From assembly GCF_007559335.1 (NCBI RefSeq), contig NZ_VMBG01000002.1, forward strand, positions 248,001 to 312,000: a stretch of DNA of 64,000 nucleotides, in the 5' to 3' direction. The position numbers and the translations under genes were made by a program. Positions 17,914 to 41,849 of the stretch are shown here, one piece after another. Under the pieces are notes generated by a model. It ran no database searches. It was not told the origin of the DNA and saw nothing but the letters and a program-made list of their open reading frames with translations. This DNA comes from Rariglobus hedericola. Its GTDB lineage: Bacteria; Verrucomicrobiota; Verrucomicrobiia; Opitutales; Opitutaceae. Position 1 is the stretch's first letter. Each line of letters opens with the position of its first letter.

Positions 17914-17934
17914 TTAAACCAACTCACGTCCGTC

Positions 17935-19461: not shown

Positions 19462-19470
19462 TCCGAGGCC

Positions 19471-19695: not shown

Positions 19696-19698
19696 GCC

Positions 19699-19956: not shown

Positions 19957-20025
19957 GCAAAACACCGTTGCAGGTCTTCGTTGACCTTCCGCTGTGCTCC
20001 ACCTGATTCAATCCAAGAAAAACAA

Positions 20026-20244: not shown

Positions 20245-20360
20245 GGTGGCTCATAAGAATGAGCCGGTATGCCGCATAACATGGCACGCCTAAATCCGCG
20301 CGATCAAAGCTCGGCGCGTTCCGTCAGTCATAACGATTAGTTTAACCTCAGTTCACAGCA

Positions 20361-20407
20361 GACGAAGGCCGGTTTCTCCCACGCGGAGATCCGGCCTTCG
20401 TCGTTTT
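20361..20407 (+). terminator. Long hairpin terminator before the DUF932 gene
   Basis: A 12-bp stem (GACGAAGGCCGG at 20361-20372, complement at 20391-20402) with an inner five-bp stem (TCTCC/GGAGA) is followed by GTTTT. It could end the upstream operon. It also lies 19 bp in front of the DUF932 start, the same layout as at 17868. Confidence 0.75.
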
Positions 20408-20425
20408 CAAACCACTCACATCATC

Positions 20426-23155: not shown

Positions 23156-23467
23156 ATGGCCACAAAGCACATTCCAGCGTCCCATGTTATATCCCCAAAG
23201 GCTCATTGGGGATTGATCTCAATCTTGGACGACCAAGGGGCGGGGGAGACTGCAATCGCACTCGGCAAATGGGACCAGCATCCTGTTCTCGCAATGCGAT
23301 GGAACGGCCAACCTGATAATCCAATAGGAAACCCGCAATCAAGGGGTCTTCCTACTTGGTTCATACTCCCTGCCGGCGATTACTCGGAAGCCATCATAGG
23401 GCTGCTGCCTTCTGACAAGCAGGCCTTAGTTCGCAATTTCATTCCCAAACCTACGCGCTCATCATGA
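23156..23467 (+). CDS. Unknown 103-aa protein leading the DISARM operon
   Basis: The start at 23156 follows GAGGACGAAC. The product is a compact protein, with LISILDDQGAGETAIALGKW and LAMRWNGQPDNPIGNPQSRG suggesting beta strands, and no membrane segment. Its stop overlaps the start of the cytosine methyltransferase gene as ATGA, so it is made with the methyltransferase. I do not recognise the family. It could be a specificity or stability factor of the methyltransferase, or an unrelated operon leader. Confidence 0.65.
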   Translation: MATKHIPASHVISPKAHWGLISILDDQGAGETAIALGKWDQHPVLAMRWNGQPDNPIGNPQSRGLPTWFILPAGDYSEAIIGLLPSDKQALVRNFIPKPTRSS

Positions 23468-24552
23468 AGAAGCGAGACGACCTCAAAAAGCATAACGTTC
23501 AGGCAATTGATCTTTTTTGCGGAGCGGGTGGCCTCACCTGCGGACTAAAAAAAGCCGGTATCAAGGTTCGGCTTGGAGTGGATGTGGATCCTGTCTGCAA
23601 ATATCCTTACGAATATAATAACAACGCGAAGTGCCTCCTGAAGGATGTGCGGGAGATCAAGTCGAGCGAGCTATCCGCGCATTTTAAGGAGGGGCAGTCC
23701 ATTCGACTAATCGCAGGTTGCGCGCCGTGCCAAACTTTCTCCACCTACAATCAAAAGGCATCCGAGACGGATAGCCGCTGGTGGCTTCTGCGCGAGTTCA
23801 AGCGGGTCGTTGAGGAAATCGGACCGGAGTTGGTCACCATGGAAAACGTTCCCGGGCTCGCGGAGCACGATGTTTTCGAAGAGTTCTTGGACTTTCTCCG
23901 TAATGCAAAATACGAAGTTTCAAGCCAAGTAGTTCGTTGTGAGGATTACGGTATTCCTCAGCAACGTGAGCGTCTAGTCGTGTTGGCTTCACGGTTGGGG
24001 CCGATCTCACTTCTGCCTCCGGCACACTTTCGTAAGAGAACCCAAACTGTGCGTGATGCATTGGAGACCCTGCCGGCGCTAGCGGCTGGTGCGATTGATG
24101 AGTTTGATCCGATTCATCAAACCTCGGAGCTTTCTCCGCTAAACCTAAAGCGCATTCGCGCCTCCAGCCCTGGCGGCACTTGGAGGGATTGGCCAAAAAA
24201 ACTCGTGGCCAAGTGTCACAAAAAGAAAAGCGGTAAGACTTATCCCAGCGTTTATGGGCGTATGTCTTGGGACAAGGCCTCGCCTACAATCACCACTCAG
24301 TTTTTCGGGTTTGGTAATGGGCGATTTGGTCATCCAGAGCAAGACCGAGCAATTTCTTTACGGGAGGGGGCGATCCTGCAGAGCTTCCCTCCGACCTATC
24401 GCTTCACTCCTCCCAATAAACCAATTCATATGAAAAATATTGGGCGTTTGGTTGGAAATGCCGTGCCGGTGCGCTTGGGCGAAGTAATAGGGCGCTCTTT
24501 TCTGCACCACCTCAACCAAGTAGAGGCGAACACGCTCGCTTCCAAAGCGTAA
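23464..24552 (+). CDS. drmMII: C5-cytosine DNA methyltransferase, DrmMII-like
   Basis: The 362-residue enzyme transfers methyl groups from SAM to cytosine C5 in DNA. All key motifs are visible: I (AIDLFCGAGGL, about residues 14-24), IV with the catalytic Cys (GCAPCQTFS, about 83-91), VI (MENVPGL, about 120-126), VIII (QQRERLVVL) and X (GRLVGNAVPVRLGEVIG near the C-terminus). In DISARM a C5 methyltransferase marks class 2 systems; here it precedes a class 1 set that has its own adenine methyltransferase. It may mark host DNA against the system. The symbol reflects context and type; a solitary or restriction-associated enzyme that joined the operon is the alternative. Confidence 0.85.
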   Translation: MKKRDDLKKHNVQAIDLFCGAGGLTCGLKKAGIKVRLGVDVDPVCKYPYEYNNNAKCLLKDVREIKSSELSAHFKEGQSIRLIAGCAPCQTFSTYNQKASETDSRWWLLREFKRVVEEIGPELVTMENVPGLAEHDVFEEFLDFLRNAKYEVSSQVVRCEDYGIPQQRERLVVLASRLGPISLLPPAHFRKRTQTVRDALETLPALAAGAIDEFDPIHQTSELSPLNLKRIRASSPGGTWRDWPKKLVAKCHKKKSGKTYPSVYGRMSWDKASPTITTQFFGFGNGRFGHPEQDRAISLREGAILQSFPPTYRFTPPNKPIHMKNIGRLVGNAVPVRLGEVIGRSFLHHLNQVEANTLASKA

Positions 24553-24554
24553 TA

Positions 24555-24576
24555 GAGCTTCAGATATCTGAAGCTC
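24555..24576. promoter_or_regulatory. 22-bp perfect palindrome abutting the drmD start codon
   Basis: GAGCTTCAGAT at 24555-24565 is followed without spacer by its exact complement at 24566-24576. The ATG of drmD begins at the next base, and the methyltransferase stop lies 2 bp before the palindrome. It occupies the position where a Shine-Dalgarno sequence would be, and none other is visible. It could be an operator, or an RNA hairpin that limits helicase translation. Confidence 0.75.
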
Positions 24577-27500: not shown

Positions 27501-27714
27501 GTTGGAGCCCACCAAAGTTAAACAGTTGGAGCTTTCGCTAGGCCTTGAAAACGAGCGGCTCCAACTGCGGCGGGATGTTGCGGCACTCCAAGCGCGCCTT
27601 GATCGTATCCCTCAAGAACGGATCGACGAAATTGCCGCCCTTGAGCGCCGCTACTCGGCCTTGGCGCACCGAACCTTTCCCGTCGCCGTTACCTTCATTC
27701 TCCCGGCCAAATGA
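24577..27714 (+). CDS. drmD: DrmD, SNF2-like helicase of class 1 DISARM
   Basis: The 1,045-residue superfamily 2 ATPase has motif I DDVGLGKTIEAGL (about residue 145), motif II VVDEAHN (about 256), motif III FLSATPHNG (about 293) and the C-terminal helicase motifs FTEYRATHSW (about 525), ATDAASEGIDLQ and RNGRIDRHGQ (about 613-622). The C-terminal 300 residues include coiled-coil segments. DrmD is the signature helicase of class 1 DISARM and is always near the adenine methyltransferase. Its stop overlaps the drmMI start by 4 bp (ATGA). The start at 24577 has no Shine-Dalgarno but directly follows a perfect palindrome. Confidence 0.93.
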   Translation: MIGANPEVPLQDIPAEGQLVKVRGRDWVVSNVLESDLAAPGMPLQHLVSLSAIDEDSFGETLRVVWQIEPGAQISTRAGFPSITGHDDPDRMEAFIDAVRWGASVNADRSFLQSPFRSGVSIESYQLDPVVRAIDMARVNLLIADDVGLGKTIEAGLVIQELLVRHRARTVFVVVPSSLQLKWQAEMQEKFGLEFRIINTEYLAQLRREQGIHANPWTSFPRLIASMDWMKSGEALRLIKDVLPPHLSYPRKFDILVVDEAHNVAPAMATQYAIESQRTSLIRRIAPHFEHRIFLSATPHNGYQESFTSLLELLDDQRFARSAMPEEKQLQRVMVRRLKTDLVDPAGNPIYPKRVIKTLPVSYTKEEKDAHALLKCYAASRAQTAGEPRSALGSAFVLNLLKKRLFSSPRAFALTLAKHQESLAGRGRKSAASDLDERILRKAISKLEEDTSNDEQIEDSIADAVGEAGAVVAPLTPDQRELLEKLSAWANASKSRPDSKAQAILAWLDEHIRPEGRWGDARVILFTEYRATHSWLHEILTQHGYGAERLMVLHGSLDPDERAKVMAAFQAAPSESKVRILLATDAASEGIDLQNHCNFLIHVEIPWNPNVMEQRNGRIDRHGQKKPPTIWHPVGSTFTPGVDSATTKVGEVDGDHEYLMRAVMKVEAIREDLGSVGPVIAQQIVEAMSGKRATIDTREAEVKAAKARRFVVAERKLNERIAKLHERLLEARNDFHLSPERIARAVQVALQISEKPALRAIAWPGAPTGAVFEVPAIPGWERATEGLHHPHSGHRRPITFDHEVAKGRDDIVLAHLNHRLVQMCLRILRAEVWSSDSRKRLHRVAVRRSSDPDLTTPLVVVCSRLLVTGGNHHQLHEELTLAGGELRPDGFSRVAQVGRLETWLENAIPCEPSAAILTGLKAQFDRDVDSITSANDARARERLRFLENTLARRKESDVADITGLLQELEKTLRHELEPTKVKQLELSLGLENERLQLRRDVAALQARLDRIPQERIDEIAALERRYSALAHRTFPVAVTFILPAK

Positions 27715-30700
27715 GCGCATCCCAACACATCACCTGGCTCAACTTGGTGGAGAAGACCGGCCCATTCCTTGCCGTGTCTGTGCTCGACGAGGCCTTTCCC
27801 CAAGGGCTCGAAAAGGTGGAGACCCGCCGCCGTCAGAGGGTGCGAAGCGCGTATGATGAATGGCGCGATGCGGTGGACGCTGAAGACGCCGAACTTGCCG
27901 CCTTACACCGCGAGTGGGTGCGCCTCATTCTGGAGGAGTTGCTGGAATATGATGCGGCGATGCTCAGGGCCGACGACCAGCTCCCCGCGACCTTGGTTTA
28001 TCGCGAGCCCATGTGCGGCGTTGAGGTGCGTCCTACTTTTGCCGCAACCACGGGCGACACGGCACGGCTGTTGATCGCGATCTACTCTCCGGATTGTGAC
28101 CTCACCGCGCCGCTGCCGGGCGACGCTTGGATCACCGCATCTCCCATTGAGCGCATGACGCAGCTTTGCCGGGCGACCGGAGTTCGTCTCGGCTTGGTCA
28201 CCAACGGTGAGCGCTGGTCGGTTGTGAGCGTGCCGAGCGAGGGCAGCTCAAGCGTGGCAACTTGGTTCGCCCGCATTTGGCAGCAGGAGCCGGTTACCTT
28301 GCAGGCCTTTGTTTCCCTGCTCGGGGTTCGCCGCTGTTTCGGCCCTGCGGCAGGCACGCTGGAAACGCTTCTAGCAAATTCTCTCAACGACCAGAACGAG
28401 ATTACCGACACCCTCGGTGAACAGGTGCGCAGGGCGGTAGAAGTCTTGGTGCAGGCGCTCGACAAAGCCGACGCCGCCCAAAATCGCACTTTGTTGACCG
28501 GCGTGACGCCTCCCCAGCTATATGAGGCCGGGGTAACGGTGATGATGAGGTTGGTCGTGCTGTTGTGTGCTGAACAGCGCGGGCTGCTTCTGTTGGGCGT
28601 CGATACTTACGATCAATACTACGCCGCCACCACGCTTCGGGTGGGTTTAGAAAAAGAGAAGAAAGACCTCACCGACGACGTGCAGGAGCGTCGTCACGAT
28701 GCCTGGGCGCGCTTGCTCGCCTTGTGTCGCGGTGTGTTCGGCGGCATTGAGCACGCCACGCTTAGACTTCCGCCCTTGGGTGGCACTCTATTTGATCCAG
28801 ATCGTTTTCCCTTCCTTGAGGGACGGGCAGCGGGAAGCACTTGGAGGGAAACGCCCGCAGTGCCACTACCCATTGATAACCGAACCGTTCTCACGCTTCT
28901 GAACGCGTTGCAGGTTTTAGAGCAAACGGCAGGGGCTCAGTTCCTTTCGTATGAAGCGCTTGATGTTGAGCAAATCGGCCATGTTTATGAAGGTCTCTTG
29001 GAGCGCACGGTCAGGCGAGTTCCCGAGGTAACGGTGGGGCTCGTCGGCTCTGCGAAGGCATATAATCCAAACATCACCTTGCGCGAATTGGAGGAAAAGG
29101 CCGAAGAGGGTCGGGACTTACTGTTAATTTTTTTACAGGAAACAACAGGGCGTTCAGAATCCGGCTTACGGAAGGCGCTAGACAGATCGGCGGACGAGGC
29201 AGTCCGACACCGGCTGGCTATGGCATGTGGAACGAGGACCAAATTGGTGCCCAAGCTCCTTCCGTTCGCCAACCTAATCCGAGAGGACACCGCAAAACGC
29301 CTGCTCATCTATGACGAGGGCTCGTATATCGTCACCTTGGGTGACAGTCGCCGGGACACTGGCACACACTATACCCCCAAGTCGCTCACTGAACCCATTG
29401 TTCAGAATACGCTCGAACCTCTTGTATATATAGGCCCAGTGGAAGAAACACCGCGCGAGAAGTGGAAACTGAAGTCAGCACCCGACCTGCTAAGCCTAAA
29501 AGTCTGCGACATGGCAATGGGGTCGGCAGCTTTTCTTGTGCAGGCATGCCGATGGCTGGCTGATCGCGTAATGGAGGCGTGGGATGCGGCGGAAAAGGCA
29601 GGCAGTCGAGTTTCGATAGATGGGAAAGTGTTGGATCAAGCGGGCAAGGACGAACCGCTTCCCATCATCAAGGGCGAGCGCGTGCTAATCGCCCGCCGGC
29701 TTGTGGCCAGCAGGTGTCTCTACGGCGTGGACAAGAACCCGATGGCTGTCGAGCTGGCTAAGGTGAGTTTGTGGCTCGTAACCATGCAGAAAGGAAAGCC
29801 ATTCAGTTTCCTCGACCACTCTTTCAAATGCGGCGATTCGCTGCTCGGCGTCACCGACTTGCTACAGATTGAAAACTTCAGCTTACGTCCTAAAACTCGG
29901 CAGGTCACTTTTGCATCCGCCAATTTACTCCCCTTCATTAAGCTCGCAGAAACGAAGCGCTGTGAACTTGAGAACCTTCCCTCCAATGACTACGCACAGA
30001 TAAAAATTAAGAATCTCCTCCACGGAGAAGCTGAGGCTGCCATCGCTAAGGTTAAGATGATCGCTGATTGCCTCATTGGCTTAGAGTTGCGTTGCCTCGA
30101 TGGCAACGCTTACGAAGAAGCTCGCGAATACGAGGTGGAGCAAGTTCACGCAGCCTTACATGCATCTGCGCCGGCCATTTACGCACAAGCGAAATCACAC
30201 GAACGCAGTTCATTTCATTGGCCAGTGGAGTTTCCGGAAGTGTTCTCTCGTGGCGGATTCGATGCGTTTCTCGGGAACCCACCGTATATGCACGGACGTC
30301 GCATCTCCAGCCGTATTTCGGATGAATACCTCGCTTACTTGTCCACTTATCATACACAGATAAACTCCAGCTCTGATCTAGCGGTATATTTTATATTACG
30401 AGGGTATAAGCTGGTTAAAAATGGTGGTGCAGTAGGTTTGATCACGACACAAGGCGTGGCCACCGGCGACTCTCGGGAGTCCGGATTGGCCTGGATTACC
30501 TCAAACGGAGGAAGCGTTTATTGGGCTACACCAGACTACCTCTGGCCCGGTGCGGCGGCGGTTCGTGTCTGCTCATTTTCAATATTGAAGCAGGTATCTT
30601 TGCTGTTCGGAACATTTGGATCTAAACGAGTCGATAAGATAAACAGTTACTTGACCGAAGCTACCTCTGACTTATTGGCACCGTTTTCCTTATTAAAAAA

Positions 30701-31706
30701 CAAAGACATCTCCGCTACAGGCACATACGTCTATGGCCGCGGCTTCGTCCTTTCGCCCGAACAAAGACAGCACTTCATAGAGGCCGACCCTCGCAACACT
30801 GAATTCATTTTTAGATTCCTAAGAGGACAGGACATAAATCAGGACCCTGAGCACAGAGCCTCGGCCTTTGTTATTAACTTCGGTGAAATGCCCGAGAGTG
30901 AAGCAAGAAAACGGCCGCTTATATTCGATCACTTACGGCGCTACGTGGAGCCGGAACGAGCAAAACAAACCAAGCAAGTTCACGAGGAGTGTTTTTGGAA
31001 GCACTGGGATAAGAGGCCTGAACTTTACAGTAGATTGAAGCCTCTGCGGCGGTGCATGGTGCATGCTTTCACCTCTAAACATGTCGTCTTCGCCTTTGTC
31101 CCTACTGAACAAATTATAGCTACACCGCATGTCGTGTTTCCAACTGAATCAATGGGTTTTTTCGCAAACTGCCAAAGCAGTCTGCATATTGAATGGGTGT
31201 TGAGGTTTTCATCAAAAATGAAAAGCGATGTTAGGTATACGCCTTCCGATTGCGTGCAGACATTCCCGTTTCTTGGAGATGCGGAGAGTTTGGCTATGAT
31301 GGGTCAGAGCTATTACGATTATCGCCGCGAGTTCATGATAGCAAAGAATGAAGGGCTAACCAAAACTTACAACCGATTCCACAATATAGCGGAGCAGTCG
31401 GCGGACATCACTCGTTTGCGTGTGTTGCACATGGAGCTAGATCAGGCCGTGGCTGCCGCCTACGGCTGGCAAGATTTGAACCTAGGCCACGGCTTCCACC
31501 TCACCAAGCAAGGCGAACGCTACACACTCAGCGAGCCCGCCCGCCGCACCGTCCTTGATCGCCTCCTAGCCCTCAACCACCAGCGCTACGACGAGGAAGT
31601 GAAAGCTGGCTTACATGATAAGAAGACCGGGAAGAAGAAGTCCGCCACCTCGGCATCAAGGAAATTGGACGCGACAATTGAGCAGGGGCAGGGAGAACTT
31701 TTATAA
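27711..31706 (+). CDS. drmMI: DrmMI, N6-adenine DNA methyltransferase of class 1 DISARM
   Basis: The 1,331-residue protein is a large gamma-type adenine methyltransferase, related to Eco57I/BREX-type enzymes. Motif I reads VCDMAMGSAAFLVQA (about residue 598) and the catalytic motif IV is NPPYM (about 857). The N-terminal 550 residues and the C-terminal part (ending near AYGWQDL) would hold target recognition. It should methylate host sites so that the nuclease and helicase parts ignore self DNA. From about 30.3 kb to 31.4 kb the sequence is more A+T-rich than the ends, which may reflect exchange of the target-recognition region. A 41-bp gap follows before the GHKL-TIR gene. Confidence 0.93.
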   Translation: MSASQHITWLNLVEKTGPFLAVSVLDEAFPQGLEKVETRRRQRVRSAYDEWRDAVDAEDAELAALHREWVRLILEELLEYDAAMLRADDQLPATLVYREPMCGVEVRPTFAATTGDTARLLIAIYSPDCDLTAPLPGDAWITASPIERMTQLCRATGVRLGLVTNGERWSVVSVPSEGSSSVATWFARIWQQEPVTLQAFVSLLGVRRCFGPAAGTLETLLANSLNDQNEITDTLGEQVRRAVEVLVQALDKADAAQNRTLLTGVTPPQLYEAGVTVMMRLVVLLCAEQRGLLLLGVDTYDQYYAATTLRVGLEKEKKDLTDDVQERRHDAWARLLALCRGVFGGIEHATLRLPPLGGTLFDPDRFPFLEGRAAGSTWRETPAVPLPIDNRTVLTLLNALQVLEQTAGAQFLSYEALDVEQIGHVYEGLLERTVRRVPEVTVGLVGSAKAYNPNITLRELEEKAEEGRDLLLIFLQETTGRSESGLRKALDRSADEAVRHRLAMACGTRTKLVPKLLPFANLIREDTAKRLLIYDEGSYIVTLGDSRRDTGTHYTPKSLTEPIVQNTLEPLVYIGPVEETPREKWKLKSAPDLLSLKVCDMAMGSAAFLVQACRWLADRVMEAWDAAEKAGSRVSIDGKVLDQAGKDEPLPIIKGERVLIARRLVASRCLYGVDKNPMAVELAKVSLWLVTMQKGKPFSFLDHSFKCGDSLLGVTDLLQIENFSLRPKTRQVTFASANLLPFIKLAETKRCELENLPSNDYAQIKIKNLLHGEAEAAIAKVKMIADCLIGLELRCLDGNAYEEAREYEVEQVHAALHASAPAIYAQAKSHERSSFHWPVEFPEVFSRGGFDAFLGNPPYMHGRRISSRISDEYLAYLSTYHTQINSSSDLAVYFILRGYKLVKNGGAVGLITTQGVATGDSRESGLAWITSNGGSVYWATPDYLWPGAAAVRVCSFSILKQVSLLFGTFGSKRVDKINSYLTEATSDLLAPFSLLKNKDISATGTYVYGRGFVLSPEQRQHFIEADPRNTEFIFRFLRGQDINQDPEHRASAFVINFGEMPESEARKRPLIFDHLRRYVEPERAKQTKQVHEECFWKHWDKRPELYSRLKPLRRCMVHAFTSKHVVFAFVPTEQIIATPHVVFPTESMGFFANCQSSLHIEWVLRFSSKMKSDVRYTPSDCVQTFPFLGDAESLAMMGQSYYDYRREFMIAKNEGLTKTYNRFHNIAEQSADITRLRVLHMELDQAVAAAYGWQDLNLGHGFHLTKQGERYTLSEPARRTVLDRLLALNHQRYDEEVKAGLHDKKTGKKKSATSASRKLDATIEQGQGELL

Positions 31707-31747
31707 ATTAGTCCGTTAGTAAACACTCAGCATACAACTCCAGCACC

Positions 31748-33631
31748 ATGAGTAAGGAATATAAAATCAACATCGACCCTCGCATTCTTGAGCTCTTGGG
31801 GCCAAATCTCTACACGAATATTTACTACGTCCTCGCAGAGTTGATTGCGAATGCCTACGACGCGGATGCCAAGAACGTCTATGTCATAGCTAATAAGGAC
31901 GACATCAGAGTCGAGGACGATGGACGCGGCATGTCCTATAAGAAAGGCGATGTAACTAAGTATCTGGATGTCGCTGCTGAGTCACGAACGACGGAAAAGG
32001 ATGCCCTCACCAAATCGCTCAAGCGCCGAAAGATGGGTCGAAAGGGCGTCGGCAAGTTGGCTGCTCTTTCCGTTTCTCAAGACGTAGATGTCATGACCAT
32101 TTCCGGGGGCGACAAGTCTGGCTTCGTGCTGTCGCGGAGAATCGAAAAGGGTAATAAACTCCGCCCAATTCCAGAAGGTGACATCAAGTTCGAGCGTATC
32201 AAGACGCACGGGACTGCCATTGTGATGAAGTCGCCGCAATACCGACTCCACAACTCTCTAACCGCGGTGAAACGCAATCTACTGAAGATCTTTCCCTTGG
32301 TCGGGAAGGACTTCAAAATTCACATCATCCGAGGCAAGGAGGCAGAGGTAATTGAGGACTTCGACCGCAATATCATGAAGGAGCTGGTTACGCTCATCAC
32401 ACTCGGTGCTTCATACTCTTCGCTGTCTACTTTAGTGCCGAAGACCTTCCCCAAACGGCAAAAAGAATTGGTAGCCGTTTACGGGACAAAAACGATTCCT
32501 TTGCAGATGAAGGACAAGAAGGGCATCGAACACGAATACTCCCTCGAAATCAATGGTTGGATAGGCACCTATCAGACCACAAAAGGCCGCAAAGCCGAAA
32601 TGACCGATTTTCCGGACAATTTCATCTCGTTGTTCGCAAACGGCAAAATGGGCGAGTTCAACCTCCTTCCTGTAGTCGGCCAAAACAAACTGAACGAAGT
32701 TTATGTCGTCGGTCAGCTTCACGTCGATCTGTTCGAACTCACGGAATTGCCCGACATGGCTTTAAGTAACAGGCAGGGTTACAAGTCGGATGACCCACGC
32801 TACCTTGCGCTTCTCGACTACGTCAGGCGCGATCTACTGGCGGACATCCTTAGGCGCCGGGACACCTTCACGGATCTCAGAAACGTAGAGAAGAAGTTAA
32901 TTAAGCAAGGGAAGCAAAAGGAGGACGAGGAAAGGTTGAAGAAAGCATTCAATGTTTTTGGAAGCAAAGCGAGTAAGGCGGCTGCAAAAACTCTCGCCGA
33001 CCAAGGTATCGACGTGCCGATGGACGTGATCGAACAAATCGTGCTCAGCTCAATCAACAAAAACACCCCCAACTTAGGATTGAAGAGCATTGTCGATTCC
33101 CAGAAAAAAAGAATTCTGATCAGCCAAACGTATCCTGATAAAGCGTTCGCAGATGTTCTATATCAGATGCTGATATTTAACAACGTCCCTGCCGATGATA
33201 TCCTTTACACAAACTGTGACGATGAAGTCTGCCGAGTCCCTGAGGGACGAAAAGTTTACGAATACCTAAAGGAGTTTTTCGTCGAGAGTTACTCGAATCA
33301 AAAAATTTTCGTTCTCTTCGTCACTAGTGACAACACAAAGGTTTCGTGGGGTGCGATCACGGAGGTAGGTGCGGCCTGGATCACGCAGATCGACCATAAG
33401 ATTTTCAACATACATCCTTTCCGGCCAGAGCACCCACTGGACGACGAAGCGCAGTGGCAATCGACCAATCGTGACGCACCGCCAATGAAAGACCTTTGGA
33501 TGATCCCGCTCAATGCGGACATTTTCTGTCAGAAAATCGAAGCCGTATGTGATGCGCTTGGTTATAAGAAAAAGCCGCGCGCGCAAAACAAGAGTCATCT
33601 CGGAACACTCGTGACTATCAAAACGAGTTAA
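31748..33631 (+). CDS. GHKL (Hsp90-like) ATPase fused to a TIR-like domain
   Basis: The 627-residue protein is not a core DISARM gene. The N-terminal part is a GHKL ATPase: N-box ELIANAYDADAKN (about residues 31-43), VEDDGRGM (about 55-62) and GRKGVGKLAALS (about 97-108), similar to Hsp90/MORC-type ATPases. Residues about 365-440 are helical. From about residue 453 a TIR-like fold begins with KKRILISQTYPDKAFADVL and contains SDNTKVSWGAITEVGAAW (about 527-544), matching the S-x-W-x-x-x-E pattern around the catalytic Glu of NAD-cleaving TIR domains. The inferred role is an ATP-gated NADase or signal generator. It sits inside the operon with 8 bp to drmA. Confidence 0.85.
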   Translation: MSKEYKINIDPRILELLGPNLYTNIYYVLAELIANAYDADAKNVYVIANKDDIRVEDDGRGMSYKKGDVTKYLDVAAESRTTEKDALTKSLKRRKMGRKGVGKLAALSVSQDVDVMTISGGDKSGFVLSRRIEKGNKLRPIPEGDIKFERIKTHGTAIVMKSPQYRLHNSLTAVKRNLLKIFPLVGKDFKIHIIRGKEAEVIEDFDRNIMKELVTLITLGASYSSLSTLVPKTFPKRQKELVAVYGTKTIPLQMKDKKGIEHEYSLEINGWIGTYQTTKGRKAEMTDFPDNFISLFANGKMGEFNLLPVVGQNKLNEVYVVGQLHVDLFELTELPDMALSNRQGYKSDDPRYLALLDYVRRDLLADILRRRDTFTDLRNVEKKLIKQGKQKEDEERLKKAFNVFGSKASKAAAKTLADQGIDVPMDVIEQIVLSSINKNTPNLGLKSIVDSQKKRILISQTYPDKAFADVLYQMLIFNNVPADDILYTNCDDEVCRVPEGRKVYEYLKEFFVESYSNQKIFVLFVTSDNTKVSWGAITEVGAAWITQIDHKIFNIHPFRPEHPLDDEAQWQSTNRDAPPMKDLWMIPLNADIFCQKIEAVCDALGYKKKPRAQNKSHLGTLVTIKTS

Positions 33632-33639
33632 ACTCAACC

Positions 33640-36600
33640 ATGTCTGACATCATCGAACAGAATGCTTGGTTGATCACCGCCGATCCGGATCTTAGCACGA
33701 CTATCGAACACCATCGGTCCAGGTTAGTTCCGGGGATCAAGGTGGGGGATGGAGTCGCCATCATTAATCAATCGTCGGCCGAAGTGATGGCTTTCGCGCG
33801 CATCTACAGAGTCCGGAGTTCGGTGGATGCGACAACCTTGTATTATGATTGCTTCGTTCGGCATTCGGCGAGTGCTAGCCTAACATCGTTGGGTTTGCCT
33901 ACGCCTACTTCGATGATACAGCGGATCGACTGGCCGACGTATGAGGCGGCTTTCGCGAAATCCACCGGAAGTTCAGTCACCGACATAAAGCCGATCAGCG
34001 GGGAATCTTTGGCGGAGCAGGCCCATCTGCGCCGTCTTCTTCAATTCTCTGTCATGGATGATCTCCTTGGGCCTGCGAATGGTCCCGATGAAGAGGTTAT
34101 CGGAATGAGTGTTCGCGACCGCTACCTTGTCGGTAAACTGGCCCCGAAAGAGTATGTGCAAGAAGAGGGAAAGCCGTCTCTCGAAAGCGAGGAGGCGGAC
34201 GCGGTCAAAGACCTCACCCCGAAAGCAAACGACGATCATATTTCCAACGAAAAAAAGAGCACATCTCGTCTTTCGGCCAAGGGGGAAGACGAGGACAACG
34301 AGACCGATCGTCTGGAAAATCAATCGCTGGTGCCTTCGTCGATTGGCTTCACGTTTTGTTTGGATGGCGACGCGACTGAAATCGAACTGGAAGCCCGGTG
34401 GGGACGTTATCATCGAGGAGAAAGCGCCAAGGAAACCAGCCCTGATACCGGCAAACCTTTGCGTGCCTGGAAACGCACGCCCAGCGGCAACACGATACCG
34501 TTTCCCCTGGTAGAAGGCCCGATTAAGCCGTTCGCCATAGATCCCGCGTGCCCGGAAGTAATCATCAAAGGAATCGTCCGCCCGGTATCAGCCAAGGGGG
34601 ATCGCCTGATCACGCTCTTCCTGATTAACAATCAAGAGAAGCCGGAGGAAGCTCAGGACTCGGCATGGCTATTTCAGCCAGAGGTAATCGTTCGCGGAAT
34701 TAAGGGTGCTACGGTATTCCGCCGCCGTCCCGTCCTTGAGGCTCAAGATACCGATGACTTGGAGACAAGAGAGCGGATTGCGCTGGAAATGGTTTACCGC
34801 AAGCGCGTCGAATTCGCCGTCGGGCACGGTATCGCGGTGCACGCCACGACTGCGGCTGATTCCGAGAAAGCCCGCGAGATTCGCACCGTGGTCATGCCGA
34901 CCCATGAGTTGCCGGTCACCGAGACACCGGGCACCGACCCGCATGACCGGCCAGCCATGCGAAAGCTCGTCGAAGAAGGCACCTTCGACATGGAGCAACT
35001 CGCGGCCCTCGACCGTCCGGCCTTGGTTGCGGCGCTCAAGATCCTCACCGAGGATTATGCCGCTTGGATTGGCGAACAGACCTCACGAATCCCCGGCGAG
35101 TTCTCCGCCTACATGAATGCTGCCGAGGAGGCGATGGGGCGCTGCGATAAGGTCTTGGCCCGGCTTCGCGAGGGGATAACCGCGATAGAAACCAACGATC
35201 ACGCGTTGGCGGCGTTTCGTTTCGCCAACCTCGCAATGGCACGGCAGCGCGTGCGGAGTATCTATTCACTCAAGCGCCGCCGCAAAGAAACTACCACGGT
35301 CGCCGAAGAAAACATCCCCAAGAACCGCTCATGGCGTCCGTTCCAGTTGGCCTTTGTCCTTCTCTCCATTCCGGCACTATCCGACCCCAAGCACCACGAT
35401 CGCACCGAGCCGCTCATGGCTGCCGCCGATCTACTCTGGTTCCCAACCGGTGGCGGTAAAACGGAAGCCTACCTTGGTGTGGCCGCTTTCACGATGGCCA
35501 TTCGTCGCCTTCAGACAGGTCTCGGCGGCTACGACTCATCGCGAGGTCTCTCCGTCATCATGCGCTACACACTGCGCCTGCTGACAATTCAGCAATTCCA
35601 ACGCGCCACCACTCTCCTTTGCGCCATGGAAACATTGCGCAAAGCCGACGTAGGCAAGTGGGGAGCGACTCCGTTTACTCTCGGCCTTTGGGTCGGTAAC
35701 AAAGTCAGCCCCGGCACGACTGAACGGGCACATGCCGTCATTGAGTCGGAGCGCGACGGAACACGCGGTGGGTCGGATACCCCCGCTCAATTGACGTTCT
35801 GCCCTTGGTGTGGCTCGGATATTGTTCCAGGTCGGGATATTTCCGTGGATCGCGACTGCCTGCGCACGACGCTGTATTGCGGTGATAAAACCGCTGACTG
35901 TGACTTCGCCAAAAAAGACGGCTCGGACGGTCTTCCGGTCGTGGTCGTTGACGAGGAGATTTATCGACGCCCGCCGTCCATGCTCATCGGCACCGTCGAT
36001 AAATTTGCCATGATGGCATGGCGCGGCGAAACCCGGACTCTCTTCGGTCGCGCAGAGCATGAGTGTGAACGCCACGGCCTCCTATGGCCCGGCTGCGACT
36101 GCAATCAGGGGCATAAGAAAAAGGGGGCGTTGAAGGCCGTAAAAGTTCAGCCCGTGTCGCCTATTCGCCCCCCCGACCTGATCATCCAGGACGAGTTTCA
36201 CCTTATCAGCGGGCCGCTCGGCACCATGGTCGGCCTTTACGAAACCACCGTGGACGAAATGTCGGCGTGGCCGCTGGACGGAAAAACGATTCGTCCCAAA
36301 ATCATCGCCTCGACCGCGACGGTGCGAAAAGCACAGGAGCAGGTGCATCACGTCTTCATGCGCAACGTGTCCGTGTTCCCGCCGCACGGCTTGGACATTG
36401 AGGATAATTTCTTTTCGGTGCAGCGGCCCGTCACCGAGAAGCCGGGGCGCCTCTATCTCGGCATCTGCTCGCCGGGCAGTTCACGCCCTGCGGTTTTGAT
36501 CCGCCTTTACGTCGCCCTCCTCACCGGCGCACAAAAGCTCTACAACGATTTCGGGAAAGCCGCCGATCCCTACATGACCTTGGTCGGCTACTTCAATTCA

Positions 36601-37548
36601 CTCCGCGAGCTGGGTGGCATGAGGCGTCTTGCGGAAGACGACGTGCAAACCCGTGCTTTCCGCGTCCTCATGGGCCGGGTCAACCGCCCCGGTCTCGCGC
36701 AACGCAGCGTCAAGGTTGTCGAGGAACTCACTTCCCGTGTTTCCAGCAAAGAAATACCAAAGAAATTGGATCAGCTGGAAACGAAATTCAAACCGACATG
36801 GGCCAAGGGCGAAGCGCGCGCCATTGATATCGTTCTTGCGACCAACATGCTTTCGGTCGGCGTTGACGTAAACCGTCTCGGTCTCATGGCGGTGAACGGC
36901 CAGCCGAAGAGCACCGCCGAATACATTCAGGCTACCAGCCGCGTCGGTCGTTCTTACCTTGGCCTTGTTTGCTCTGTCCTAACTTGGTCACGGCCGCGCG
37001 ATCTCTCGCACTACGAGACCTTCGAGCATTACCACGCGACTTTCTACAAGCACGTCGAAGCCCAGTCAGTCACGCCGTTTGCGGCTCGTGCGCTAGATCG
37101 AGGACTCACGGGCGCATACGTCAGCTTGTTGCGGCTCACAAATACGGCCCTCAATCCTAACCTCGGTGCAATGGCCCTCACAGCGACCGCGCATCCTGAC
37201 GCCCAGCGGATGAAGGATGCGTTCGCCAATCGAGCATGGAAAGTTCGCGATGAAGCCTCCGCCAAAACAACCACGTCAAGCATGGTGGCCCAACGTCTCG
37301 ATCACTGGGTAAAAGAAGCCAACAAACCGGGCCGAAGACTTGGCTATGAAACCGAAAACGGCCAAGGGGACATTGTCGCGCTGATGAAAAAGCCCGGCCT
37401 GCATCGCTGGGACATCGTAACCGCTCCCATGTCTCTTCGCGAAGTGGAGCCGGGAGTTCGTCTCATCATGGATACTGCAACGCTGGAAGACGGCCCTGCG
37501 TGGCAGATTCCCGTAAAGGATAAACCCGAGGATAACGACAATGAGTAA
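33640..37548 (+). CDS. drmA: DrmA, helicase of DISARM
   Basis: The 1,302-residue protein has motif I FPTGGGKTEAYLG (about residue 603), motif II QDEFHLISG (about 849), STATVRKAQ (about 891) and the C-terminal QATSRVGRSYLG (about 1097). A cysteine cluster (LTFCPWCGSDI and DCLRTTLYCG, about 723-750) could bind zinc. DrmA together with DrmB forms the core that scans DNA for unmethylated sites in described DISARM systems. The first about 85 residues (NAWLITADPDLSTTIE ... GDGVAIINQ) look like a separate PUA/EVE-type module. It overlaps drmB by 8 bp (ATGAGTAA). Confidence 0.94.
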   Translation: MSDIIEQNAWLITADPDLSTTIEHHRSRLVPGIKVGDGVAIINQSSAEVMAFARIYRVRSSVDATTLYYDCFVRHSASASLTSLGLPTPTSMIQRIDWPTYEAAFAKSTGSSVTDIKPISGESLAEQAHLRRLLQFSVMDDLLGPANGPDEEVIGMSVRDRYLVGKLAPKEYVQEEGKPSLESEEADAVKDLTPKANDDHISNEKKSTSRLSAKGEDEDNETDRLENQSLVPSSIGFTFCLDGDATEIELEARWGRYHRGESAKETSPDTGKPLRAWKRTPSGNTIPFPLVEGPIKPFAIDPACPEVIIKGIVRPVSAKGDRLITLFLINNQEKPEEAQDSAWLFQPEVIVRGIKGATVFRRRPVLEAQDTDDLETRERIALEMVYRKRVEFAVGHGIAVHATTAADSEKAREIRTVVMPTHELPVTETPGTDPHDRPAMRKLVEEGTFDMEQLAALDRPALVAALKILTEDYAAWIGEQTSRIPGEFSAYMNAAEEAMGRCDKVLARLREGITAIETNDHALAAFRFANLAMARQRVRSIYSLKRRRKETTTVAEENIPKNRSWRPFQLAFVLLSIPALSDPKHHDRTEPLMAAADLLWFPTGGGKTEAYLGVAAFTMAIRRLQTGLGGYDSSRGLSVIMRYTLRLLTIQQFQRATTLLCAMETLRKADVGKWGATPFTLGLWVGNKVSPGTTERAHAVIESERDGTRGGSDTPAQLTFCPWCGSDIVPGRDISVDRDCLRTTLYCGDKTADCDFAKKDGSDGLPVVVVDEEIYRRPPSMLIGTVDKFAMMAWRGETRTLFGRAEHECERHGLLWPGCDCNQGHKKKGALKAVKVQPVSPIRPPDLIIQDEFHLISGPLGTMVGLYETTVDEMSAWPLDGKTIRPKIIASTATVRKAQEQVHHVFMRNVSVFPPHGLDIEDNFFSVQRPVTEKPGRLYLGICSPGSSRPAVLIRLYVALLTGAQKLYNDFGKAADPYMTLVGYFNSLRELGGMRRLAEDDVQTRAFRVLMGRVNRPGLAQRSVKVVEELTSRVSSKEIPKKLDQLETKFKPTWAKGEARAIDIVLATNMLSVGVDVNRLGLMAVNGQPKSTAEYIQATSRVGRSYLGLVCSVLTWSRPRDLSHYETFEHYHATFYKHVEAQSVTPFAARALDRGLTGAYVSLLRLTNTALNPNLGAMALTATAHPDAQRMKDAFANRAWKVRDEASAKTTTSSMVAQRLDHWVKEANKPGRRLGYETENGQGDIVALMKKPGLHRWDIVTAPMSLREVEPGVRLIMDTATLEDGPAWQIPVKDKPEDNDNE

Positions 37549-39388
37549 CCACCTTCCCGTCGGCTCGGTTCGGCCGAGTCAATTGCTCTGGACTTACGGC
37601 CCCGGTGCCTTGGTCGATTTACCCAATCTGTCGGTCTTAACGATGGGGCTAGATCGCTGGGATCAGCTTCGCTGTGCGCCGATTGATGAAGAGCGATTGC
37701 TTGAGGCCGTGCGCAAGCAACTCGGTCAGCAGGTAGAAAGGTTGCGTGTGCCTCCGGTCAGCGAAACCGAGGGTGTCGATAAATTCAGCCCCGAGGCCAA
37801 GATCGGCGTGCCAGTTCGGCCATTCCCTCGATGGCTCCGCTGCGTGAAATGCGGCACTTTGGCCGAGTTCGATTCCGGTCTGTTTGATATAAAAGAAAAC
37901 CCATATCGCCCCGAGGATACACGGTTTGTTCACAAGACTTGTCCCCACGGCCATAACGCTGATGCAGTGCCGGCCCGTTTCCTTTTGGCGTGCCGCGAGG
38001 GTCACCTGGATGACTTTCCGTGGCGCTATTACGTCCACGAAGGCCCGTCTGACTGCAAAGGCACCCTCAGCTTTTTCGAGCAGGGCGCTTCCCTCCAAAC
38101 CGAGAACCTCTGGGTAAAATGCGACTGCGGAAAGTCCCGATCTCTCGTCCATGCGTTCGGAAAAGAGGGCACGAAGAATCTTCCCGTGTGTCGCGGTCGC
38201 CACCCGCACCTCAACCATTACGACGATTGCTGCAAAGAGCAGCCGCGGGCGGTGCTCCTTGGCTCAACCAACAGTTGGTTCTCGATGAGCATATCGGTTC
38301 TTTCGATTCCAAGCACGGGCAACGCACTGGAACAGTTGGTCAATGATGGATGGGCCTATTTCGAGGATGTCACGAGCGTGGCCGAAGTTCAATTTACGCT
38401 CAAAACGCTCATCAAGGGATCTAACTTGCCGGGTATCGAAGCCTACACGCCCGAGGCGGTATGGGAGCAGATAGTCGCCAAGCGAGACGGCAAAAAAACG
38501 GCTCCCCCTCAAGAAACCGATATCAAACGTCCCGAGTGGAAAGTCCTGACCGATCCCAAGGCCCCCAATAACTGGCCGCACTTCATGACCAGCAAGGCGG
38601 GGGTGCCGACAGCGTATGCTTCGAAGATTCAAGACGTGCTTCTCTTGGATAGGCTCAAGGAGGTAAACGCGCTCATCGGCTTCACCCGTGTCGAGGCACC
38701 CGAGGAATCCGACGACCCGAACGACCGGCCTCCCATGGCCGCGCTTTGCCGAGGAAAACCGACCTGGATTCCCGCTTTCGAAGTTCACGGCGAAGGCATT
38801 TTCATTCGTTTCCGTGAGGACGCGATTTGTGCGTGGATGGGCCAAAAAGCCATCACACAAAGAGACATGATGCTACTCGGCGGGCACGTCGGCTGGCGTC
38901 ACGCTCGTCAACTCGACGCGGGCAAGGGATACCCCGGCGTTCGCTACGCGATGCTCCACACCTTTTCACACCTCCTCATTCGTGAGCTGGCGCTGGAATG
39001 TGGATACAACACGGCGAGCATACGTGAGCGTATCTATTCGGATGGCGATCCGGCTGACCCAATGGCCGGCATCCTCCTCTACACTGCCGCCGCCGATTCA
39101 GACGGCACGCTTGGCGGTCTGGTTGAACTAGGGAAGCCAGAGAATCTGGGTCGACTGATAACGCAGGCGCTGCGTCGCGCGGCGATTTGCTCTTCCGATC
39201 CGCTGTGCTCTGAACACGACGCCCGAAACGACCGGAGTTTACACGGCGCATCCTGCCACGGCTGTTCCTTTGTTGCGGAAACGTCATGCGAAAAGGGCAA
39301 CCGATATCTTGATCGTGCGTTGGTCACCGGAACATTCGAGAACACCGACGCCGCGTTCTTCGACGCCCCTCCGCTATCCGATGAGTGA
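37541..39388 (+). CDS. drmB: DrmB, DUF1998 protein of DISARM
   Basis: The 615-residue protein carries the family start VGSVRPSQLLWTYGPGALVDLP and, near the C-terminus, the DUF1998 block HTFSHLLIRELALECGY followed by conserved cysteines (AICSSDPLC, SCHGCSF, TSCEKG; about residues 546-587) that probably bind zinc. DrmB partners DrmA in DNA binding and unwinding. Additional cysteines at RCVKCGTL and WVKCDCGKS suggest further zinc sites. Both ends overlap neighbours by 8 bp, ATGAGTAA with drmA and ATGAGTGA with drmC, so DrmA, DrmB and DrmC are translationally coupled. Confidence 0.94.
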   Translation: MSNHLPVGSVRPSQLLWTYGPGALVDLPNLSVLTMGLDRWDQLRCAPIDEERLLEAVRKQLGQQVERLRVPPVSETEGVDKFSPEAKIGVPVRPFPRWLRCVKCGTLAEFDSGLFDIKENPYRPEDTRFVHKTCPHGHNADAVPARFLLACREGHLDDFPWRYYVHEGPSDCKGTLSFFEQGASLQTENLWVKCDCGKSRSLVHAFGKEGTKNLPVCRGRHPHLNHYDDCCKEQPRAVLLGSTNSWFSMSISVLSIPSTGNALEQLVNDGWAYFEDVTSVAEVQFTLKTLIKGSNLPGIEAYTPEAVWEQIVAKRDGKKTAPPQETDIKRPEWKVLTDPKAPNNWPHFMTSKAGVPTAYASKIQDVLLLDRLKEVNALIGFTRVEAPEESDDPNDRPPMAALCRGKPTWIPAFEVHGEGIFIRFREDAICAWMGQKAITQRDMMLLGGHVGWRHARQLDAGKGYPGVRYAMLHTFSHLLIRELALECGYNTASIRERIYSDGDPADPMAGILLYTAAADSDGTLGGLVELGKPENLGRLITQALRRAAICSSDPLCSEHDARNDRSLHGASCHGCSFVAETSCEKGNRYLDRALVTGTFENTDAAFFDAPPLSDE

Positions 39389-40151
39389 TCTTTGGCACAC
39401 TATTGCTGAACTGTGCCTAGAGCTACATCCCGACCGCGTAAATGCCATCGCTACGGGCATCGGCGGAATCAGTTCGGTGGATCGCTTGCGGGGAACGCGC
39501 GACCGCTTCGGGCCAAGCGCGGGCAAAGCGTTATTCGAAAAGCTGGACGCCGCTTGGCAAAAGTCGGCCGGGGTTTCGCCCGCCGAAGTGTCCGCAGCGT
39601 TCAAAAGCGCATCGGCAGCAGCCGCGCTCAAAGGGGCACAAGGCTCAATTGAATTGGTTTGGTCGGGGCCATCGACCGGAGTGGTTCCCGTTCGCCAAAC
39701 GGAGGAGGTGCTTTGCGAGGTCATTGAGGGTGCCCACGTCAGTCTCTTCATCGTGAGCTATGTGGCCTACAAACTCGATCGAGTGCTCCGGTGCCTTGAT
39801 GCGGCGCTCAGTCGAGGCGTGAAGATTGAAATCTTGATGGAGTGCTCGGTGGATAACGGTGGAAAGCTAGCCTTTGACGCAATGGCCCCGCTTATTCGGC
39901 GCTTACCCGACGCGGTGTTTTATACATGGCAACAACCCTCGGATGCGGCGCACCACGAGCTGGGTTCAGTTCATGCCAAGTGCGCTATCGCTGACGGCAA
40001 CCTGGCTTTTATCACTAGCGCCAATCTCACGGCCGCCGCCATGGACCGAAACATGGAAATGGGACTCTTGGTCAAGGGAGGGCACGTCCCGGCACAGATG
40101 CAGGAACATTTTGAAATACTGATCGATAACAAGACCATTGAGCGGTTCTGA
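39381..40151 (+). CDS. drmC: DrmC, phospholipase D-like protein of DISARM
   Basis: The 256-residue protein has a single PLD motif, SVHAKCAIADGNLAFITSANLT (split at about residues 195-216), with the H-x-K pair expected for phosphodiesterase action. The N-terminal 100 residues are helical. In described systems DrmC is not always needed for protection. The start at 39381 overlaps the drmB stop as ATGAGTGA; an upstream start (39270) would lie deep inside drmB. The gene ends 6 bp before vsr. Confidence 0.92.
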   Translation: MSDLWHTIAELCLELHPDRVNAIATGIGGISSVDRLRGTRDRFGPSAGKALFEKLDAAWQKSAGVSPAEVSAAFKSASAAAALKGAQGSIELVWSGPSTGVVPVRQTEEVLCEVIEGAHVSLFIVSYVAYKLDRVLRCLDAALSRGVKIEILMECSVDNGGKLAFDAMAPLIRRLPDAVFYTWQQPSDAAHHELGSVHAKCAIADGNLAFITSANLTAAAMDRNMEMGLLVKGGHVPAQMQEHFEILIDNKTIERF

Positions 40152-40157
40152 AGCGCA

Positions 40158-40595
40158 ATGGACCACTTGGAACTAAGTGCACGTTCGCGATTGATGGCTA
40201 AGGTTCGGCATCGAGACACGAAACCGGAGCTGATTCTAAGAAGTGCCCTGCATCGACTCGGGTATCGATACCGCGTCAACCAGCGGAGACTACCGGGTTC
40301 TCCCGATCTTGTTTTTGCCGGACGGCGTGCGGTGATTTTCGTGCACGGGTGCTTCTGGCACGATCACAGTGGATGTAAGTTCGCAACGAAGCCGAAGTCG
40401 CAAGTTGAGTTCTGGAGCGAAAAATTTAGAGCAAACAAAGAGCGAGATCAAAGAAACTACGCGGCACTCAAAGCAGACGGTTGGAAAACGCTAGTTGTTT
40501 GGGAGTGTTCTTTAAAGGGTGTCAATCTGAGCAAAACGATAGAGCAAACGGAAGAGTGGTTAATTCGGCCAACCACTTATCGAGAGCTACCGTAA
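40158..40595 (+). CDS. vsr: Vsr-type very-short-patch repair endonuclease
   Basis: The 145-residue enzyme nicks next to T:G mismatches produced by deamination of 5-methylcytosine. The match is clear: SRLMAKVRHRDTKPEL at the start, LPGSPDLVF with catalytic Asp50, FVHGCFWHDHSGC with His63 and His68 at positions equivalent to the E. coli enzyme, and a WECSLKG end. It starts 6 bp after drmC, so it belongs to the DISARM transcript. Its presence makes sense next to the C5-cytosine methyltransferase at the head of the operon, which raises the C-to-T mutation rate at its target sites. Confidence 0.95.
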   Translation: MDHLELSARSRLMAKVRHRDTKPELILRSALHRLGYRYRVNQRRLPGSPDLVFAGRRAVIFVHGCFWHDHSGCKFATKPKSQVEFWSEKFRANKERDQRNYAALKADGWKTLVVWECSLKGVNLSKTIEQTEEWLIRPTTYRELP

Positions 40596-40634
40596 CTCGG
40601 GATGCCTTCACATGCTTGTCCGCACGTCCGAGCC

Positions 40635-41720: not shown

Positions 41721-41849
41721 CGCAGTATATATGGTGTAAGTAGGGACTTGGACGAAGGCTGCGAAGCTCAATCGGAGTCGGTTTCACATTTTATTTCCCG
41801 TTCGGCTGTAATCGTTCGGCAAAGCGATTGAGGTGATGATTTACCTTTC

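What the first reader, a model, noticed from the sequence alone, without database searches (positions are those of the whole stretch)
31748..33631. Hsp90-like ATPase fused to TIR-like domain inside DISARM
GHKL motifs are intact, and the C-terminal SDNTKVSW...E pattern fits NAD-cleaving TIR domains. The gene lies between drmMI and drmA, where no core DISARM gene is expected. It may couple detection of invading DNA to NAD depletion or to a cyclic nucleotide signal, adding abortive defence to a restriction-like system.
Basis: partly seen in the sequence, partly recalled or inferred. Interest (0 to 1): 0.75.

Follow-up and report, generated by a model that had tools for sequence, protein, structure and literature searches.

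The report
Methylase-paired ATPase-TIR defence protein
This bacterial gene joins the DNA-sensing ATPase half of a known restriction-enzyme family to a domain that in relatives destroys the cell's NAD, and it usually travels with a DNA methylase, so it probably works as a restriction-like alarm that shuts the cell down instead of cutting DNA.

Summary
Window 31748-33631 (+) encodes an intact 627-aa protein: a GHKL/S5 ATPase module joined to a TIR domain. The nearest solved TIR is the NADase SpbK, and E539 aligns with SpbK's catalytic E192. It sits between drmMI and drmA of a complete class 1 DISARM operon.

The interpretation changes. The constant partner is a C5-cytosine methylase, not DISARM. 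Of 67 loci without linked DISARM, 57 have this methylase within 300 bp; the eight such genomes searched gave no DrmA match. Residues 5-415 match the N-terminal part of the BbrUII/HgiDII restriction-enzyme family. Three full-length members of that family lie beside the same kind of methylase, and one more lies just before drmA in another DISARM genome. The methylase target-recognition region is on average as conserved as the rest.

Best reading: an HgiDII-like restriction-modification module whose nuclease is replaced by an NADase, here nested in DISARM and possibly sharing its methyl mark. NAD cleavage, unmethylated-DNA sensing and phage defence are inferred, not shown. The ATPase-TIR architecture was published in 2008 as paraMORC4, so this is a new variant of a known kind.

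The parts
31748..33631 (+). GHKL/S5-TIR protein (GT), 627 aa
   Evidence: translation; Pfam; PADLOC; NCBIfam
31769..32887 (+). GHKL + S5 ATPase module (residues 8-380), MORC/HgiDII-like
32888..33085 (+). helical linker (residues 381-446)
   Evidence: AlphaFold2 helices 350-418 and 425-443
33086..33628 (+). TIR domain (residues 447-627); E539 (33362-33364) aligns with SpbK E192
   Evidence: model; fold matches; alignment; conservation
23464..24552 (+). C5-cytosine DNA methylase (DCM), the constant partner
   Evidence: PF00145 E 4e-52; TIGR00675 over cut-off; neighbourhood counts
40158..40595 (+). Vsr-type patch repair endonuclease, an occasional third member (profile hit in 29 of 67 free and 7 of 17 DISARM-linked loci)
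   Evidence: PF03852 E 1.4e-28; TIGR00632 over cut-off; DCM-GT-Vsr order in L011
24577..27714 (+). DISARM DrmD
   Evidence: NF038317 1334 bits, cut-off 610
27711..31706 (+). DISARM DrmMI (MmeI/Eco57I-like methylase)
   Evidence: PADLOC DrmMI 1620 bits; PF07669
33640..37548 (+). DISARM DrmA
   Evidence: NF038325 1421 bits, cut-off 950; PDB 7s9v DrmA 1581 bits
37541..39388 (+). DISARM DrmB
   Evidence: NF038324 738 bits, cut-off 240
39270..40151 (+). DISARM DrmC (ORF as listed; the real start is probably downstream, as the family match begins at residue 50)
   Evidence: NF038319 218 bits, cut-off 133

Best explanation
The gene is the effector of a restriction-modification-like module. The upstream C5-methylase (DCM) marks the host's own DNA, probably at a TCGA-core site (inferred). 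The GHKL/S5 module of the 627-aa protein is homologous to the N-terminal part of BbrUII/HgiDII-type restriction enzymes (shown by sequence) and acts as an ATP-driven dimer clamp that probes DNA for the unmodified site (inferred). On invading, unmodified DNA the dimers cluster; their C-terminal SpbK-type TIR domains (fold and active-site residues shown) then self-assemble and cleave NAD (inferred), stopping the infected cell. In effect the nuclease of an HgiDII-like system has been replaced by an NADase. In this genome the module is interleaved with a complete class 1 DISARM operon (shown), and the same methyl mark may serve both DISARM and the NADase (inferred).
For: TIR fold and catalytic set. 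SpbK E192Q abolishes defence and NAD loss (PMC11984713, passages); SpbK G194R and W197A lose filament assembly and NADase (PMC12847820, passages), and these positions are G541 and W544 here, 84 of 84 filled rows. Partner: DCM within 300 bp in 57 of 67 loci without linked DISARM, within 1 kb in 63 of 67; among the 36 with at least 7 kb on both sides, 29. No DrmA match in the 8 such genomes among the 12 searched. Sensor half: NF050001 BbrUII/HgiDII family, 222.7 bits over profile positions 1-394 of 659. Full-length members L099, L101 and L102 (753-801 bits, cut-off 550) each lie beside a DCM; one more (640.6 bits, cut by a contig end) lies in L158 before an unidentified ORF and drmA. Target: DCM TRD identity averages 0.51 against 0.52 for the rest, over all pairs of 78 rows. 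M.HgiDII is reported as a GTCGAC m5C methylase (PMC5867850, passages), and the Serratia DISARM C5-methylase as YMT(mC)GAKR (PMC9142583, passages). VcSduA, a GHKL-nuclease relative, needs both its ATPase and nuclease residues for defence (PMC12137116, passages).
Against: No activity has been measured. The active-site helix is the worst-modelled part (pLDDT under 50 at 535-544; at 535-537 in the TIR-only model). No Pfam TIR model fires. GT is far below the NF050001 cut-off. DCM and GT distances correlate only moderately (Spearman 0.31 against at most 0.21 in 500 permutations), so partners are sometimes exchanged. DCM also persists in DISARM loci where no GT was found (L125, L137), so in DISARM it is not GT's alone. 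The link of GHKL genes to DCM among DISARM loci is weak once loci picked with knowledge of their GHKL gene are left out (p 0.026 to 0.079). The TCGA target is inferred from relatives; no M.HgiDII or Serratia sequence was compared, and no other methylase family was used as a control for TRD conservation. L091 has a lower TRD identity to the window (0.32) than elsewhere in the protein (0.45).
Confidence: 0.52

Rival explanations
1. Guard model: GT is triggered by a phage protein (as SpbK is by the YonE portal) or by loss or inhibition of the methylase, not by unmethylated target sites. DCM acts as an antitoxin or as bait.
For: The TIR is closest to SpbK, which is activated by a phage portal protein (PMC12847820 passages). 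The tight pairing with DCM (57 of 67 within 300 bp) also fits a toxin-antitoxin-like pair.
Against: The N-terminal part is that of a restriction-enzyme family. DCM TRD conservation across restriction-enzyme and TIR versions points to a shared DNA target.
Confidence: 0.2
2. DNA-structure sensor: like Shedu-type relatives, the GHKL clamp senses DNA ends or damage regardless of methylation, and DCM is a loosely associated protective methylase.
For: GHKL proteins with a Shedu-like C-terminal part exist, including one in this genome (L002, SduA_C 24.4 bits, under the 27-bit cut-off); VcSduA is protective as a GHKL-nuclease protein (PMC12137116 passages).
Against: DCM lies beside GT across many phyla, including archaea, and beside the full-length HgiDII-type proteins L099, L101 and L102.
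Confidence: 0.13
3. DISARM accessory: GT is activated by DrmAB after it loads on phage DNA and is a suicide arm of DISARM.
For: It lies inside the operon with 41 and 8 bp gaps; 17 of 84 distinct loci are DISARM-linked, 16 of them with GT in the drmMI-drmA interval.
Against: 67 of 84 distinct loci show no linked DISARM, though 18 of them have under 2 kb on one side; the 8 such genomes searched gave no DrmA match; the tree needs 10 changes between linked and free, at least 8 forced by supported branches.
Confidence: 0.1
4. The TIR is a nuclease, a ligand-binding domain or a signal maker rather than an NAD depleter.
For: Iyer et al. 2008 proposed a nuclease or an allosteric ligand-binding site for this TIR (PMC2292703, section 5); some bacterial TIRs make signals (PMC11312562, abstract in listing).
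Against: Catalytic Glu and assembly residues match the NADase SpbK. A signal receptor gene nearby was not searched for.
Confidence: 0.05

Closest known systems
paraMORC4 family (Iyer, Abhiman and Aravind 2008, PMC2292703)
   Same: GHKL + S5 + C-terminal TIR, in restriction-like operons with methylase, Vsr and helicases; no MORC-specific S5 motif
   Different: That paper suggested a nuclease or ligand-binding TIR. Here the TIR matches the NADase SpbK. I did not see its Figure 2, so it may already show similar operons. The word DISARM does not occur in it.
BbrUII/HgiDII restriction enzymes (NF050001) with their C5-methylase
   Same: Homologous N-terminal part (residues 5-415), same kind of methylase partner; one copy lies before drmA in another DISARM genome
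   Different: The C-terminal part is a TIR; score 222.7 against cut-off 550
SpbK (Bacillus subtilis TIR NADase)
   Same: Closest solved TIR fold; catalytic Glu and assembly residues G194 and W197 conserved
   Different: SpbK has another N-terminal domain, which binds a phage portal; a methylase partner is not part of its description in the passages seen
VcSduA / paraMORC3 (GHKL-Shedu nuclease)
   Same: GHKL module with a C-terminal effector
   Different: The effector is a nuclease; reported as an independent system
GHKL-Ymh (HEPN) fusions in R-M loci (Anantharaman et al. 2013, PMC3710099)
   Same: A paraMORC with a toxin-like C-terminal effector in restriction loci; L160 is an example beside Vsr and DCM
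   Different: The effector is a predicted RNase
Class 1 DISARM (Serratia type)
   Same: The surrounding operon is a full class 1 DISARM; Serratia DISARM also carries both an adenine and a C5 methylase
   Different: GT is not a DISARM core gene and mostly occurs without linked DISARM

Membership tests
paraMORC4 | GHKL motifs intact | tested here: met
   E31, N35, D38, D57, G59, G61, M62 in 83 of 83 filled rows; G97, R98, K99, G100, G102, K103 in 85 of 85
paraMORC4 | S5 domain after GHKL | tested here: met
paraMORC4 | lacks the MORC motif GhXhhpXXRhl | tested here: met
   regular expression, no match
paraMORC4 | C-terminal TIR domain | tested here: met
paraMORC4 | Hx[ST]xD motif in the first TIR loop (called highly conserved in 2008) | tested here: inconclusive
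   window reads QTYPD; D464 in 85 of 85, but the first position is Q in 54 and H in 31
BbrUII/HgiDII restriction enzyme (NF050001) | full-length match over the curated cut-off (550 bits) | tested here: not met
   222.7 bits, profile 1-394 of 659
BbrUII/HgiDII restriction enzyme (NF050001) | adjacent C5-methylase | tested here: met
   57 of 67 loci without linked DISARM within 300 bp; in the window the methylase is 7.2 kb upstream, across drmD and drmMI
BbrUII/HgiDII restriction enzyme (NF050001) | recognition of GTCGAC | not testable with these tools
   only methylase TRD conservation seen
TIR NADase (SpbK type) | TIR fold | tested here: met
TIR NADase (SpbK type) | catalytic glutamate | tested here: met
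   E539 aligned with SpbK E192, 84 of 84 filled rows
TIR NADase (SpbK type) | NAD cleavage | not testable with these tools
   needs an assay
DISARM core gene | occurs only with drm genes | tested here: not met
   67 of 84 distinct loci without linked DISARM; no DrmA match in the 8 such genomes searched
Class 1 DISARM (the neighbouring operon) | drmD, drmMI, drmA, drmB, drmC | tested here: met

The most novel reading that the evidence does not exclude
One methyl mark guards two layers. The C5-methylase in this operon protects self DNA both from DISARM (DrmAB) and from an HgiDII-like sensor whose nuclease has been replaced by an NADase, so the same missing mark first triggers DNA restriction and then cell shutdown. 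More generally there would be a widespread class of restriction-modification systems, from archaea to Bacteroidota, whose restriction enzyme attacks NAD instead of DNA.
Probability: 0.32. Interest if true: 0.82.

Novelty: new variant of a known kind. Interest (0 to 1): 0.64.

Why it matters
If true, methylation-based self-recognition is wired to NAD depletion in a two-gene system found in many phyla. It would give the 2008 paraMORC4 family a testable function, link the HgiDII/BbrUII restriction enzymes to bacterial TIR immunity, and suggest why such modules sit inside DISARM: they could share one self-mark. It would also show the GHKL module as a platform with exchangeable effectors: nuclease, HEPN RNase or TIR.

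Tried and rejected

DISARM core component: rejected.

Direction of nesting: L011 (DCM-GT-Vsr without DISARM, 81% GT identity) is colinear with the window. I looked for drm remnants in its two gaps by blastn and blastp; no convincing match. Direction unresolved.

Methyltransf_35 gene next to GHKL in Microvirga (L100) and the 332-aa ORF in L158: no similarity.

Pfam gave no family for the L158 fragment; its assignment rests on NF050001 alone.

TIR swap history: 37 of 38 TIR rows form one supported clade (SH-aLRT 96), but L091 groups with the HEPN-type L160 (95), so a second fusion is possible; quick tree, long branches.

Promoter and terminator scan of 22700-41000: fewer promoter-like sites than shuffles and no clear terminator excess.

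Literature: in the listings I recognised no paper that describes this protein as an NADase partner of a methylase; most listed papers were not opened (one search listed 20 of 180), and the library lacks most subscription papers and bioRxiv's own collection.

Rows dropped: from the GT tree L085 (duplicate of L012), L056, L053, L072, L028, L073 (partial or split), leaving 79; from the DCM tree L031 and L058 (short) and DCM hits under 250 bits. The count ignored DCM hits under 150 bits, so the broken DCM beside GT in L079 is not counted. From the 22-locus DISARM sample the window, G085 and G603, which the DrmMI searches also returned, were left out.

Full report

Active site. In the alignment, E539 falls on SpbK E192, G541 on G194 and W544 on W197 (numbering of the chain shifted to the paper's). 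SpbK E192Q loses NAD cleavage and defence (PMC11984713, passages); G194R and W197A lose filament assembly and NADase activity (PMC12847820, passages). E539, G541 and W544 are present in 84 of 84 rows with the column filled, and the checked invariant GHKL residues in 83 of 83 or 85 of 85.

Neighbours. In order on the + strand: C5-methylase (from 23464), drmD, drmMI, GT, drmA, drmB, drmC, Vsr (to 40595). DrmD, DrmA, DrmB and DrmC exceed NCBIfam cut-offs. DrmA is a close relative of the solved Serratia DrmA (1581 bits). That Serratia DISARM carries a C5 and an adenine methylase, and DrmAB ATPase was lower on DNA with 5-methylcytosine (PMC9142583, passages).

The constant partner is the methylase. 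A genome-contig scan found 141 relatives and kept the best 80; with one viral contig, two genomes of the same family, one Listeria record and the window this makes 85 rows, 84 after one duplicate. A few of the 84 are near-copies from different genomes (L033/L034, L037/L038, L090/L091). I called a locus DISARM-linked if at least two of DrmA, DrmB and DrmD matched in the fetched stretch: 17 are, 67 are not. Of the 67, 57 have DCM within 300 bp and 63 within 1 kb, and 30 gaps are zero or overlaps. Many stretches are short: 18 of the 67 have under 2 kb on one side; of the 36 with at least 7 kb on both sides, 29 have DCM within 300 bp. The four beyond 1 kb are L068 (2,675 bp), L030 (about 11.5 kb away on the same contig), L028 (partial hit on another contig) and L079 (broken DCM beside it, intact copy elsewhere). 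Of the 17 linked loci, 16 have GT between drmMI and drmA; L084 does not. Eleven show DCM in the fetched stretch; L036 shows it in a longer stretch; L017 has it upstream on the same contig with one in-frame stop; L060, L082 and L084 have it on other contigs; L022, a contig that begins inside drmMI, has none found. Of 12 carrier genomes searched for DrmA at E 1e-20, the 8 without linked DISARM gave none and the 4 with DISARM did; these assemblies may be incomplete.

Trees. GT from DISARM loci does not form one clade: 10 changes, at least 8 forced by supported branches (79 rows, quick method). For DCM it is 8 and 7 (78 rows, careful method). In both trees the window pairs with L011, a DCM-GT-Vsr locus of the same family in the same gene order but without DISARM, and L012 (DISARM) is next. 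GT and DCM distances correlate (Spearman 0.31; highest of 500 permutations 0.21; 71 pairs), but not tightly.

Link to a restriction-enzyme family. NCBIfam NF050001 (BbrUII/HgiDII restriction enzyme) matches residues 5-415 to profile 1-394 of 659 at 222.7 bits, under the full-length cut-off of 550. The other four GTs tested also match only the N-terminal part. L099, L101 and L102 match over the whole profile at 753-801 bits, and each lies beside a DCM. L099's protein, DCM and Vsr lie next to a class 1 DISARM. In genome G346 one contig runs DCM-drmD-drmMI-end, and another starts with an HgiDII-type protein cut by the contig end (640.6 bits), then an unidentified ORF, then drmA-drmB-drmC. So the restriction-enzyme version probably occupies the slot that GT has in the window; the contigs were not joined. 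In 387 genomes of the phylum, 12 (the window's own among them) match NF050001 at E 1e-40, one of them over the cut-off. L160 carries a third version, GHKL with a Ymh domain, beside Vsr and DCM; Ymh is a predicted HEPN RNase reported fused to paraMORCs in restriction loci (PMC3710099, passages).

Shared target. Across 78 DCMs from free, nested and restriction-enzyme-type loci, identity averages 0.51 in the TRD (window residues 176-272, my boundaries) and 0.52 in the rest; L091 is an exception. Methylases with different targets usually diverge most in the TRD (general knowledge, no control run here), so a common core target is likely. M.HgiDII is reported as GTCGAC (PMC5867850, passages) and Serratia's DISARM C5-methylase as YMT(mC)GAKR (PMC9142583, passages). 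Both contain TCGA. I had neither sequence for direct comparison.

DISARM context. In 22 class 1 DISARM loci (12 from DrmMI searches of genomes, 10 of the 33 plasmid records with a DrmMI match), DCM is in 8 and a GHKL gene in 4, all among the 8 (p 0.0096). Two of the four, L099 and L100, were fetched before the DrmMI search, L099 because its GHKL gene was already known. Without them p is 0.079; adding G085, which the DrmMI search also returned, 0.026; then dropping three loci whose upstream side is hardly seen, 0.043. DCM is also present in two DISARM loci where no GT was found (L125, L137), so there it serves DISARM or other cargo.

Mechanism. Shown: domains, active-site residues, partner, homology to a restriction-enzyme module. 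Inferred: DCM marks self at a TCGA-core site; the GHKL dimer probes unmarked DNA with ATP; clustering lets TIRs assemble and cleave NAD; the cell shuts down. A precedent for a GHKL module with a C-terminal effector is VcSduA, where ATPase and nuclease mutants both lose defence (PMC12137116, passages).

Known or new. The GHKL-S5-TIR architecture in restriction-like operons was described in 2008 as paraMORC4, with nuclease or ligand-binding guesses for the TIR (PMC2292703, sections 4 and 5 read; figures not seen). In the listings I recognised no paper giving it an NADase role with the methylase; most of those papers were not opened. I rate it a new variant of a known kind.

Noticed in passing
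drmMI-drmA interval in L125, L137, L139, L143, L144, L012, L124: This interval of class 1 DISARM looks like a cargo slot: Piwi + SIR2_2 + AbiJ_NTD5 + AlbA_2 genes (L125), a weak reverse-transcriptase match (L137), a gene annotated PIN (L139), AAA + DUF4435 (L143), genes annotated PLD and XRE (L144), AbiGi (L012), DUF4209 and AlbA_2 genes around GT (L124). It is empty in L136 and L141.
   Followed up: partly
L127 and L158 (genome G346): An HgiDII-type protein cut by a contig end lies before an unidentified ORF and drmA, while DCM-drmD-drmMI ends another contig of the same genome.
   Followed up: yes
L160:1270-4591: Vsr-DCM-GHKL with a C-terminal Ymh (predicted HEPN RNase) domain: a third effector on the same platform.
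   Followed up: partly
L002:1489-3258 (own genome, contig C1): A paralogous GHKL protein with a Shedu-like C-terminal part (SduA_C under its cut-off), on another contig than the window.
   Followed up: partly
L100:13341-15755: Microvirga plasmid DISARM has a 471-aa GHKL gene plus a Methyltransf_35 gene in the same slot; this GHKL does not match the HgiDII model at E 0.001.
   Followed up: partly
L089:12950-15064 and L078:3990-6149: Second GHKL genes next to the DCM: one carries a histidine-kinase-type HATPase and a weak HisKA match, the other a weak TIR_2 match.
   Followed up: no
L020:11872-15018 and L060:6399-9521: A second DrmD-like helicase directly after GT in two DISARM loci.
   Followed up: no
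L030:12520-16560: Beside the GT gene in Pseudomonas nabeulensis: TIR_2 + TPR-S and TPR-S + trypsin-like genes.
   Followed up: no
window 15381-21166: GC falls from 0.60-0.64 to 0.50-0.58 after about 20 kb; a tRNA-Glu lies at 15381-15457 and a DUF932 gene at 20426-21166, which may point to an integrated element.
   Followed up: no
window 40635-41771 (-): 378-aa ORF with weak HNH and ZorE-like matches just after Vsr.
   Followed up: no
L093: A GT-Vsr-DCM locus on an IMG/VR contig, so the module may also travel on phage-like elements; whether the contig is truly viral was not checked.
   Followed up: no
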